From: Ktedonobacteria bacterium brp13
Lineage (GTDB): Bacteria; Chloroflexota; Ktedonobacteria; Ktedonobacterales; Ktedonobacteraceae
Direction of reading: 5' to 3'
Assembly: GCA_015099395.1 (NCBI GenBank)
Contig: AP024096.1
Span: 5,332,001 to 5,396,000, forward strand
Length of the DNA stretch: 64,000 nucleotides
Shown: piece after piece, positions 21,581 through 24,514 of the stretch
Layout: every line of letters starts with the position of its first letter
How positions within the stretch are numbered: position 1 is the first letter of the stretch
Notes under the pieces: model-generated
The model's input: only the letters and a program-made list of their open reading frames with translations
What the model was told of the DNA's origin: nothing
Databases searched by the model: none
Translations under genes and position numbers: made by a program

Positions 21581-21652
21581 GCCGGTGTAGCTCAGGGGTA
21601 GAGCAGCTGTTTTGTAAACAGCTGGCCGGGGGTTCAAATCCCTCCACCGGCT
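21581..21652 (+). tRNA. tRNA-Thr (anticodon TGT)
   Basis: A 72-base cloverleaf: acceptor GCCGGTG pairs with CACCGGC, a D-arm with CTCAGGGGTAGAG, anticodon stem GCTGT/ACAGC around loop TTTGTAA (anticodon TGT, reading ACA threonine codons), and a T-arm GGGGG-TTCAAAT-CCCTC with one wobble. The discriminator is T and the CCA end is not encoded. It has its own consensus promoter and a strong terminator and borders an AT-rich island, so it is a plausible integration site, although no second copy of its 3' end is visible in the window. Confidence 0.97.
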
Positions 21653-21683
21653 CTAGAAGAAGAAAAACAATGCGAAAGCAACA

Positions 21684-21750
21684 AATAAGCCGTTTCAGAG
21701 GGTCTCGATAGTCAGAGACAAAACCACTGAAACGGCTTATTTTTTTAATA
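21684..21750 (+). terminator. Rho-independent terminator after tRNA-Thr
   Basis: AATAAGCCGTTTCAG (21684-21698) pairs perfectly with CTGAAACGGCTTATT (21728-21742), followed by a run of Ts. A nested hairpin (GTCTC/GAGAC) fills the loop. It is strong for a single tRNA transcript. Confidence 0.85.
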
Positions 21751-22020
21751 ACTTCAGGTCTACAACGGACCAGAAAACATGAGATAGTTAACCTTTTTAC
21801 TCTGATTTTTTTCCCTTAAATCCATCCTTCAACCTCTGAAATCTAGCTGTTAGTTCAAGTAGAGCTAGCAGAAAACCGTTTTGTCTAGAGGATGAGAGTA
21901 AAACGTCAAAACTTGCTGCTGATAGTAAGTTAACAGCAGGGAGGAATGCACTACTTAGAGCAGTGCATTTGAACTTATGCATGATAAAATTAGCAGAGTG
22001 CTTATATAATTAATAGTTTC

Positions 22021-22569
22021 TCATCTAAATGGGGGTATATCTCTAGGCAATCCCACACGTGAAAAAAAGTTTCCGAATGCGTGAGACATTTGCTCTCGAT
22101 AGGGTGATAGAAGCCTTAATCGTTTCCCTTGAGATTCGGCAAATTGTATCAAAAACAGGTAAGGAACTGTAAATGTCGTGCGAAAATCTATAATCTTGAT
22201 TCCTGATGACATGCCATCTAGAATACAATTATTTAGCATATGGAGATTTCGTGTATCACCTCTTCTAATTTTTTCATATTCCTTCTTGGAACGAAACTGA
22301 CTATATTTATCGCTAAGTTCTTCTAAAGACCAGTATGGACAAGCAACAACATACTCAATTTTTCCGTGTCCAAGATCACACGATTGGCTCATCACTACAA
22401 TGTCATAAGTGTATTGATTGGCATTGATTTGATAAGTTCGATCTGACTCTGGATCTTCAACCACATTTACGCTATATTCAGGAACATATACAGGGCAATT
22501 CTCTATCAAGTCCCCTTGCTCAAGATCTTGCCCTTCTACTATCTCATACCAAGAATCATCTTTTGCCAC
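22021..22569 (-). CDS. Conserved hypothetical protein, third gene of the TIGR04255 cassette
   Basis: 182 residues from a GTG with GAGGAG seven bases upstream. Visible conserved-looking blocks are VVMSQSCDLGHGK (about residue 58), LHMLNNCILDG, a DFRTTFTVPYLFL strand, RLRLLSPYREQMSHAFGNFF and GLPRDIPPF at the C-terminus. I recall uncharacterised proteins with the same blocks next to TIGR04255 genes, but no function is known to me. SQSCDL with nearby Cys and His could be a metal or catalytic site (inference). It lies 22 bases after the 137-residue gene and closes the operon. Low G+C compared with flanking core genes suggests acquisition. Confidence 0.7.
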   Translation of the reverse strand: MAKDDSWYEIVEGQDLEQGDLIENCPVYVPEYSVNVVEDPESDRTYQINANQYTYDIVVMSQSCDLGHGKIEYVVACPYWSLEELSDKYSQFRSKKEYEKIRRGDTRNLHMLNNCILDGMSSGIKIIDFRTTFTVPYLFLIQFAESQGKRLRLLSPYREQMSHAFGNFFSRVGLPRDIPPFR

Positions 22570-22591
22570 TTGGCATCTCCTCAGACTACAG

Positions 22592-23005
22592 TTACTCTTC
22601 TGCTAATTCATCGAAATCGAAGTCTGGAAGTGGTCCTCTCCCCATTCGCTTAACGTTCATAATGACATGCTTAACCGTATGTGGAGGCATATCAATTAAA
22701 GAACTTTGTCCTCGATATCGACCCTGAGCAAAAGAAGATGCTAACTGTAGCTTTAACCTTATAGAAGAGATAGGTGTCTGAGAGAGTGACTGAATAATTT
22801 TGTTAAAAGACACACCCATTGACCTCGCTTGATTATTAAGTGGGACCTCAGCAATAGATGACTCATATTGATCTAGAGAAGATGAAATGTTGGAGACTGC
22901 TCTTTCCCCAACGCCAGTCCACTGTGTACCAGATAGGGTTCTTGAAATTGGCTTAAAAGATATATAACTACTATCTCTCAATTCTAATGTTCCTGCTCTA
23001 CTCAT
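22592..23005 (-). CDS. Small hypothetical protein, second gene of the TIGR04255 cassette
   Basis: 137 residues, no recognised family. The N-terminal 75 residues are polar with Ser/Thr-rich stretches; the C-terminus ends in an acidic DFDFDELAEE tail. No signal peptide or membrane helix is present. Its ATG overlaps the stop of the TIGR04255 gene by four bases, indicating coupled translation, and the next gene follows after 22 bases. The tight arrangement implies a functional unit, possibly an adaptor between its two neighbours (inference). Confidence 0.65.
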   Translation of the reverse strand: MSRAGTLELRDSSYISFKPISRTLSGTQWTGVGERAVSNISSSLDQYESSIAEVPLNNQARSMGVSFNKIIQSLSQTPISSIRLKLQLASSFAQGRYRGQSSLIDMPPHTVKHVIMNVKRMGRGPLPDFDFDELAEE

Positions 23006-23742
23006 TTGTTCACCTCTCCGAAAATCTCACTATGCGTCTTTTCAGTAAAAGATGCGGTGAATGCTTCTTCAATATGTTCATGCGCAGCTTCTAACCAATC
23101 AATGATATGGGCGTCAGAAGGTATTGCATCGCTCAAGCTATACATATTTAAATCTAGTACATAAGCAGAACTATTTTCCAACTTAGGAATTATTGTTCCG
23201 AAAGTAATCCGTAATGCACTGGATGGAGATGTATAGGGTATATCCACATTAAGCAAAAATGAGGGAAATATTTGAGGGATAGGAGCAGGAACCTGGGGCA
23301 ATACTGAAAAGTATTCCTCAAGCTCAGCTTCGTTAAGAGGTATTTCTACATGATTTATATAACGTAATGCTACACTTATTAATCCTGAGGGATGCGCAGC
23401 TTTTTGGTAAGCATGTAGGTATTCAAATATATGCTCTTTGAAGTCTATCCAACTATTATAAGGGGGAAGTAGATGAATTGACAAAGAATCCGGTGCAATC
23501 TGTATGACTACATTACGTGCCTCATTGGAAAATTGCAGTTTGGGTATAGATTGCTGAATAAATTGACCTTGATCTTGATCAATTTTTGTTTCAATTGTAT
23601 TAAGCTGCTCTTTATACGGAAAGCTATCTCGTATCTCTTCGTAGAAAAGTCCTGGAATGGTCCAATCCCACGGCTGCAAACTAGAAAATTTGAAATCGCA
23701 TACAGCTTCTATCAAAGGAGGCTTCATATAAGTTCTTGCCAT
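23002..23742 (-). CDS. TIGR04255 family protein, first gene of the cassette
   Basis: 246 residues from the ATG at 23742, chosen because TGGAG lies nine bases upstream; an in-frame ATG at 23757 has no ribosome site. The start MARTYMKPPLIEAVCDFKFS is the family opening (PPIxEA...F). VALRYINHVEIP and the C-terminal DAHIIDWLEAAHEHIEEAF helix, ending in a FTEKTHSEIFG block, also match TIGR04255. The family is widespread in variable islands and has no proven biochemical role. It leads an operon of three overlapping or closely spaced genes in an AT-rich island next to tRNA-Thr, an arrangement seen for defence or conflict modules, so that role is possible but unproven. Confidence 0.8.
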   Translation of the reverse strand: MARTYMKPPLIEAVCDFKFSSLQPWDWTIPGLFYEEIRDSFPYKEQLNTIETKIDQDQGQFIQQSIPKLQFSNEARNVVIQIAPDSLSIHLLPPYNSWIDFKEHIFEYLHAYQKAAHPSGLISVALRYINHVEIPLNEAELEEYFSVLPQVPAPIPQIFPSFLLNVDIPYTSPSSALRITFGTIIPKLENSSAYVLDLNMYSLSDAIPSDAHIIDWLEAAHEHIEEAFTASFTEKTHSEIFGEVNK

Positions 23743-24292
23743 GCCATTCCACTCCATTGTCTTTACAATCTAAGCCTTCATCAAGATCAGTATAGCATAC
23801 TTTTAAAGCTAAGCCCGCTACTTCAAATAAGAACAAACCACTTACATAATCAGCTAATTTTCACTGATTTGATGCCGATATTTGACTCCTCCATACTCCA
23901 CGACCGCATCTATCTTCCTTTGTGTTCCTCAAGAAAGCTCAATAACGTGACCTCTTCCTTAAAGTATAATCACATATACTAGAGCAACTACAATACTGAC
24001 GTTACTACTTATTTTATCTTGAAGAACAGTAGTAGTAAAAAGAGGTAGTCTATAATACACGATAAGTAGCTGCTGATATACGTAGAGGGCTACATTGAGG
24101 GTATACATGGAGAACAGCAGTTTGTTTCTTTAAAGTCGCTCACCAATGACGATCCAGAGCTCACCTTTATTCAATTTAATTATATGCAAGTAACTATCCA
24201 CACATAAAAAGGTTCACTATTCATGTCAGGGGCGACATGAATAGGTAACGCAATTTATCTTATAATAGTTTTGACTGCTCTCTGCAAAGCAG
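23743..24292. other. AT-rich spacer with a possible coding remnant
   Basis: About 550 bases without a complete gene. From about 24076 to 24205 the plus strand can be read without a stop as a protein-like stretch containing GYIEGIHGEQQFVSLKSL and FIQFNYMQV, but it has a stop just upstream and no start with a ribosome site. It may be a decayed gene fragment. The promoter of the cassette should lie near 23750-23850. Confidence 0.3.
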
Positions 24293-24514
24293 TTAGCCTA
24301 CTACTTCTTGATAGAGTTTAGCCATGATACCCTCGGCTTGTTGTACTCCTACAAGATCTTCCAGTTGATCTTGATAGTCACCGAGGGCATCATATTTGTG
24401 AGCAATGAATTCGTGTTTCGCGGTGCCACACGCCAATCCCGTTAAGCCCTGGCGCATCGCTGTGAGTTCCTCGGCTATCTGTACACGCAATTGCGCTACT
24501 TCACTGCCGGCCAT
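24293..24514 (-). CDS. Small conserved hypothetical protein (73 residues)
   Basis: 73 residues with AAAGGAAG placed ten bases before the ATG on the minus strand. The composition is helical: MAGSEVAQLRVQIAEELTAM, then GLTGLACGTAKHEFIAHKYDALG, and a C-terminal helix. I recall similar 70-residue proteins starting with SEVAQLRxxI and containing GLxGLAxGTAxHxFI in Chloroflexota and other soil bacteria, of unknown function. The heptad-like spacing suggests a small helical bundle. Not cotranscribed with the cassette (500-base gap). Confidence 0.65.
   Translation of the reverse strand: MAGSEVAQLRVQIAEELTAMRQGLTGLACGTAKHEFIAHKYDALGDYQDQLEDLVGVQQAEGIMAKLYQEVVG

What the first reader, a model, noticed from the sequence alone, without database searches (positions are those of the whole stretch)
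22021..23742. Three-gene TIGR04255 cassette in an AT-rich, tRNA-adjacent island: candidate undescribed defence or conflict module
Seen: three minus-strand genes with a four-base overlap (first/second) and a 22-base gap (second/third). They are visibly lower in G+C than the core genes and lie 0.4 kb from tRNA-Thr. Known: TIGR04255 is a widespread uncharacterised family in variable islands. Inference: the unit (TIGR04255 protein, small acidic-tailed protein, SQSCDL/SPYRE protein) works together, perhaps against phage. No transposase, integrase or second att copy was seen in the window.
Basis: partly seen in the sequence, partly recalled or inferred. Interest (0 to 1): 0.8.

Follow-up and report, generated by a model that had tools for sequence, protein, structure and literature searches.

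The report
Three-gene toxin–antitoxin-like cassette with TIGR04255
Three small genes next to a tRNA gene form a module that recurs in many bacteria and archaea and looks like a poison-and-antidote pair plus a third protein (TIGR04255) that is also combined with other possible effector proteins; no description of it was found in the papers searched, and its function is untested.

Summary
In detail: three tightly packed minus-strand genes (P1 TIGR04255, P2, P3) lie 367 bp from tRNA-Thr and are the lowest-GC genes of 46 in the window. Relatives keep integrases beside the same tRNA, so the spot is an integration site. The cassette is widespread: P3 ("SQSCDL") relatives were found in 247 genome-collection stretches, bacterial and archaeal. 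Of the best 80, 70 have enough upstream sequence, and 40 of these have TIGR04255 directly upstream. P2 varies but mostly ends in a conserved tail: a profile from 8 loci gave its first 31 held-out hits, among 9,720 ORFs, all directly upstream of P3. One P2 homologue carries a RelB-type antitoxin domain. The P3 model (pLDDT 91.5) best matches MazF/Kid/CptN/PemK toxins, without detectable sequence homology. P1 resembles TATA-binding protein. In Chloroflexota, TIGR04255 heads cassettes with swapped third genes (P3 superfamily, HEPN, an unnamed family). Best reading: a three-component toxin–antitoxin-type conflict module, P2 restraining P3, TIGR04255 as regulator or sensor. An anti-phage role is plausible but untested.

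The parts
23002..23742 (-). P1, TIGR04255 protein (246 aa), TBP-like predicted fold; proposed regulator/sensor component
   Evidence: NCBIfam TIGR04255 E 4.4e-39; AF2 pLDDT 87.7; Foldseek best matches TATA-binding protein, prob ~1.0, TM <=0.41
22592..23005 (-). P2 (137 aa), proposed antitoxin; acidic C-terminal tail with MPP...VK..GRG-type motif
   Evidence: Position and tail; family tail profile validated on held-out loci; window copy itself matches weakly, E 1.7
22021..22569 (-). P3 (182 aa), SQSCDL / SPYRE protein; proposed effector with a MazF/PemK-like barrel
   Evidence: AF2 pLDDT 91.5; PDB and viral fold searches both headed by MazF/PemK; 247 related stretches in the genome collection
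21581..21653 (+). tRNA-Thr(TGT), the integration hotspot beside the cassette
   Evidence: ARAGORN; integrases beside the syntenic tRNA-Thr in relatives
21654..24290 (.). AT-rich variable segment carrying the cassette (boundaries approximate)
   Evidence: GC 0.38-0.40; conserved flanks amidase/DUF2785 upstream, SRAP/BioY downstream

Best explanation
The cassette is a three-component toxin–antitoxin-type conflict module. P3 is a MazF/PemK-like-fold effector that impairs an essential host process when free (inferred). P2 is its antitoxin: a variable N-terminal part plus a conserved C-terminal tail that binds and holds P3 inactive, as MazE tails do with MazF (tail conservation and linkage shown; binding inferred). 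P1 (TIGR04255), a TBP-like protein encoded first in the same presumed operon, stabilises or regulates the P2-P3 complex and probably responds to infection or a rival element, freeing P3 (inferred). P1 is a shared front end: elsewhere it is joined to other middle/third gene pairs, including HEPN proteins. The module travels in variable islands, here at a tRNA-Thr integration site.
For: Gene order P1-P2-P3 with short gaps recurs across phyla and domains (TIGR04255 directly upstream in 40 of 70 loci with enough sequence). P2 tail profile: first 31 held-out hits among 9,720 ORFs all directly upstream of P3, including loci without TIGR04255. A P2 homologue has a RelB-like antitoxin domain (PF18506, E 1.2e-9, above cut-off). 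P3 model: the top 13 PDB matches are toxin structures (MazF, Kid, CptIN, and entries titled only as toxins of S. aureus and K. pneumoniae), and the top viral-library match is PemK-like. P1 and P3 distances correlate (rho 0.75, 0 of 2000 permutations). HEPN-type third genes beside TIGR04255. Hotspot location and low GC. Restriction-type genes near 7 of 90 P3 loci, none in control stretches. Phage copies lie after lysis genes.
Against: No toxicity or neutralisation data exist. Fold matches are moderate (best E 6e-3 in PDB, TM 0.4-0.6). P3 has no detectable profile similarity to PemK (hhalign probability 0.3%), and by eye the catalytic Arg and Thr of MazF are not kept. The HEPN third genes lack the usual R-x4-6-H motif. 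The window's own P2 matches the tail profile only weakly. The defence-neighbourhood numbers are small, with imperfect controls.
Confidence: 0.55

Rival explanations
1. A dedicated anti-phage abortive-infection system: TIGR04255 senses a phage product and switches on P3 directly, with P2 as an adaptor rather than an antitoxin.
For: Copies beside type I, type IIG and Hma-like restriction genes and after phage lysis genes; sporadic distribution; third gene swapped among families.
Against: P2-P3 pairs occur without TIGR04255, with P2 as short as 62-73 aa, and one P2 has a RelB-like antitoxin domain, which fits an antitoxin better than an adaptor. No PADLOC system covers it.
Confidence: 0.2
2. An addiction/stabilisation module of integrative elements with no defence role.
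For: Position at an integrase-used tRNA-Thr site; toxin–antitoxin-like anatomy.
Against: No integrase or second att copy beside it here; some copies lie beside restriction genes; no match of the window P3 in 72,556 plasmids.
Confidence: 0.12
3. Not a toxin module: P3 is an enzyme or binding protein with a Q-x-C-D centre, and P1-P2-P3 form a regulatory or repair complex.
For: P3 has its own invariant residues (Q62, C64, E159, R171) and lacks detectable PemK homology; P1 resembles TBP.
Against: RelB-like domain on a P2 homologue, MazF-like fold in two libraries, sporadic distribution, third genes that can be HEPN.
Confidence: 0.13

Closest known systems
MazEF / PemIK / Kid type II toxin–antitoxin systems
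   Same: Antitoxin gene directly upstream of a toxin gene; predicted barrel fold of the toxin; acidic C-terminal antitoxin tail (the MazE comparison is from general knowledge)
   Different: P3 has no detectable PemK sequence profile and different invariant residues; a third gene (TIGR04255) heads the cassette
CptIN / ToxIN type III systems (PMC4627078, PMC5086642)
   Same: CptIN is among the top structural matches of P3; type III systems of this kind can act against phage
   Different: The antitoxin there is an RNA; here a protein antitoxin is inferred
CmdTAC and other toxin–antitoxin–chaperone systems (PMC11618068, PMC5105189)
   Same: Three-gene logic with toxin, antitoxin and a third protein controlling the pair; CmdTAC is anti-phage
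   Different: The third protein there is a SecB-like chaperone, here a TBP-like TIGR04255 protein; the toxin families differ
RnlA-RnlB / RNase LS (PMC3710099, PMC5308261)
   Same: A TBP-like domain is associated with a HEPN effector in an anti-phage toxin–antitoxin family, as TIGR04255 is with HEPN third genes
   Different: There the domains are fused in one protein; here they are separate genes, and the window copy has P3 rather than HEPN

Membership tests
TIGR04255 (P1) | Match to the NCBIfam model above its curated cut-off | tested here: met
   134.8 bits against 30, residues 5-239
MazF/PemK toxin family PF02452 (P3) | Sequence-profile match | tested here: not met
   No PF02452 hit at E <= 10; hhalign with a PemK alignment 0.3%
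MazF/PemK toxin family PF02452 (P3) | SH3-like MazF fold | tested here: inconclusive
   Top matches in two libraries, prob up to 1.00, but E >= 3.7e-3 and TM 0.4-0.6
MazF/PemK toxin family PF02452 (P3) | Catalytic Arg and Thr/Ser of the RNase site | tested here: inconclusive
   Not seen in the P3 alignment by eye, but no reliable alignment to PemK was obtained
Type II toxin–antitoxin system | Adjacent antitoxin and toxin genes as a recurrent unit | tested here: met
   P2 tail linked to P3 with and without TIGR04255
Type II toxin–antitoxin system | Recognised antitoxin domain in the partner | tested here: inconclusive
   RelB-like in 1 of 10 P2 homologues scanned; none in the window P2
Type II toxin–antitoxin system | Toxicity of one product and neutralisation by the other | not testable with these tools
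   Needs expression experiments
Known anti-phage defence systems (PADLOC) | Match of cassette proteins to a catalogued defence family | tested here: not met
   Only PDC-M01A at E 0.035 for P1; none for P2, P3
Defence-island gene | Neighbourhood enriched in defence genes | tested here: inconclusive
   Restriction/Hma genes near 3 of 7 matched loci; none named in the distal control stretches; homologues in 7 of 90 P3 loci vs 0 of 16 control stretches
TATA-binding protein fold (P1) | Structural match | tested here: inconclusive
   Foldseek prob ~1.0, E 2.7e-4, but TM only 0.28-0.41

The most novel reading that the evidence does not exclude
TIGR04255 is the shared sensor of a large, so far unnamed class of modular conflict systems in bacteria and archaea, in which the middle and third genes are swapped as restraint-effector pairs (SQSCDL barrel, its longer relatives, HEPN, an unnamed family), and the SQSCDL barrel is a toxin with a chemistry of its own around its invariant Q-x-C-D residues.
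Probability: 0.35. Interest if true: 0.8.

Novelty: new variant of a known kind. Interest (0 to 1): 0.62.

Why it matters
TIGR04255 is an annotated family with no assigned function; no paper in the 5.39 million searched mentions it. If the reading holds, it gives that family a role, adds a toxin-like family and an antitoxin tail found from Asgard archaea to Chloroflexota, and offers a simple two-plasmid test of function. A shared front protein with exchangeable effectors would also be a useful case of modular design in prokaryotic conflict systems.

Tried and rejected
tblastn of the window P3 in plasmids and phages: no match; a phage P3 in both: no match; a TIGR04255 relative in phages: none, in plasmids one, in a prophage on a Pantoea plasmid. 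PDB sequence searches with P1 and P3 profiles: nothing credible; with three P2 homologues: nothing useful. The idea that P3 is simply a PemK family member was rejected. The idea that all TIGR04255 genes carry the window's partners was rejected. The promoter/terminator scan found no more sites than shuffled sequence; one is a perfect consensus promoter before the tRNA.

Full report
What is in the window. The finding's three minus-strand genes are exactly where stated: P1 23002-23742, P2 22592-23005, P3 22021-22569, with a 4-base overlap and a 22-base gap. They are the three lowest-GC genes among 46 in the window (GC 0.38-0.40; third-position GC 0.29 against a mean of 0.53). The tRNA-Thr(TGT) ends 367 bp away. 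P1 is TIGR04255; P2 and P3 match nothing significantly in Pfam, NCBIfam, PADLOC or PHROGs. The phylum is Chloroflexota: a same-phylum genome (G267) has a P3 contig of the same length, 145,216 bases, as the Chloroploca record of L056.

The site. Eight relatives that keep the amidase-DUF2785 pair were read. Seven have tRNA-Thr nearby, and what follows the tRNA differs from genome to genome. In four of them (L182, L184, L185, L188) a phage-type integrase lies beside the tRNA. In one genus member (L183) two identical tRNA-Thr copies lie about 4.4 kb apart, followed by the same SRAP and BioY genes as in the window; that tRNA differs in sequence from the window's. The site is therefore an integration hotspot, although the window has no integrase beside the cassette and no second att copy.

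The cassette elsewhere. P3 relatives were found in 8 of 301 Chloroflexota genomes, the window's own included, and in 247 stretches of the 84,980-genome collection, including Methanosarcinales, ANME-2 and Asgard archaea, plus 10 viral contigs. Among the best 80 genome loci, 70 have at least 1.7 kb upstream, and in 40 of these TIGR04255 lies directly upstream of P3 with room for one small gene. P1 and P3 distances correlate across 45 loci (rho 0.75, no permutation of 2000 as high). This sample is the closest 80, so the share among more distant relatives is unknown.

The middle protein. P2 sequences hardly align over their length, but most end in a short stretch like D-V-V-R-M-P-P-K-(K/R)-x-Y-x-I-x-V-x-I-K-x-I-R-K-A-x-P followed by acidic residues. 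A profile of eight such tails, searched against 9,720 ORFs (all ORFs of the other loci and of the window), gave its first 31 hits all directly upstream of P3, though such ORFs are only about 1.3% of those in the loci. These include loci without TIGR04255. Some P2 are only 62-73 aa. In Oscillatoria the tail follows a RelB-like antitoxin domain (E 1.2e-9). The window's P2 has a recognisable but weak copy (MPPHTVKHVIMNVKRMGRG; E 1.7), so for the window itself the antitoxin role rests mainly on position.

The third protein. The P3 model is confident (pLDDT 91.5). Its best 13 PDB matches are toxin structures, mostly MazF with Kid and CptIN, and the best match in the viral library is a PemK-like protein. 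E-values are moderate and there is no sequence-profile similarity. P3 has its own invariant residues, among them G19, Q62, C64, G104, E159 and R171 in all 83 aligned sequences. So it resembles MazF in fold but is not shown to be a member of that family.

TIGR04255 seen from its own side. TIGR04255 occurs in 29 of 301 Chloroflexota genomes. In 34 such loci, sorted by me from the printed neighbours, the third gene is short SQSCDL in 4, a longer or diverged relative of it in 11, HEPN in 6, an unnamed 'YRR' family in 8, and unclear or absent in 5. The tie between the long and short SQ-x-CD proteins is weak for some members. HEPN identity is supported by Pfam (E 0.003, below cut-off) and by a solved HEPN protein (E 0.0032). 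The window's own genome has a second TIGR04255 gene with a HEPN-like third gene. TIGR04255 itself resembles TATA-binding protein in fold, with low TM-scores.

Neighbourhood. In 7 loci with matched controls, Hma-like, type IIG or type I restriction genes lie within 10 kb in 3, and none appear in distal stretches of the same contigs. Homologues of six such proteins occur in 7 of 90 P3 loci and in none of 16 control stretches; the six queries came from these very loci, so this comparison favours the test set. Phage-borne copies follow holin and amidase genes (L106; function read from sequence), and on a Pantoea plasmid a TIGR04255 cassette lies between lysis genes and terminase.

Reading. The simplest account is a toxin–antitoxin-type module: P2's tail restrains P3, and TIGR04255 is a regulator or sensor shared with other effector pairs. 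Linkage, tail conservation and fold resemblance are shown; toxicity, binding, sensing and an anti-phage role are inferred.

Known or new. Neither TIGR04255 nor DUF6941, an alternative first gene in phage copies, is mentioned in the paper library searched, which lacks most subscription journals and all preprints. The closest known systems are MazEF, CptIN/ToxIN, CmdTAC and RnlAB.

Noticed in passing
L012:9983-11703 (own genome, G000:C1 about 6009216-6010936): Second TIGR04255 cassette in the same genome with a 199-aa middle gene and a HEPN-like third gene; HEPN third genes in this set lack the usual R-x4-6-H motif.
   Followed up: partly
L143, L148, L151, L152, L155, L159, L162, L168, L190: An unnamed small third-gene family ('LYRR..SS.AF..SVDRA') follows TIGR04255, with a different kind of middle gene; also in a Pantoea plasmid prophage between lysis genes and terminase.
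   Followed up: partly
L103, L106, L107, L108: In phage contigs P3 is preceded by a DUF6941-type first gene, in several downstream of holin/amidase genes.
   Followed up: partly
L065, L067, L094: Another unnamed first-gene family ('ILNTS.V..A..HNPTILHP', about 220 aa) stands in the place of TIGR04255 upstream of P2-P3 in Planctomycetota and a Phycisphaerales MAG.
   Followed up: no
L047, L061, L068, L159: A type IIG restriction enzyme plus an SNF2-type helicase recur together beside these cassettes.
   Followed up: no
L027:8991-9965: A P2-like tail fused to a protein that looks like TPR repeats, directly upstream of P3.
   Followed up: no
window 24293-24514: Small 73-aa ORF with a 42% identical homologue near the same tRNA-Thr in another genus (L187:8136-8387).
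   Followed up: no
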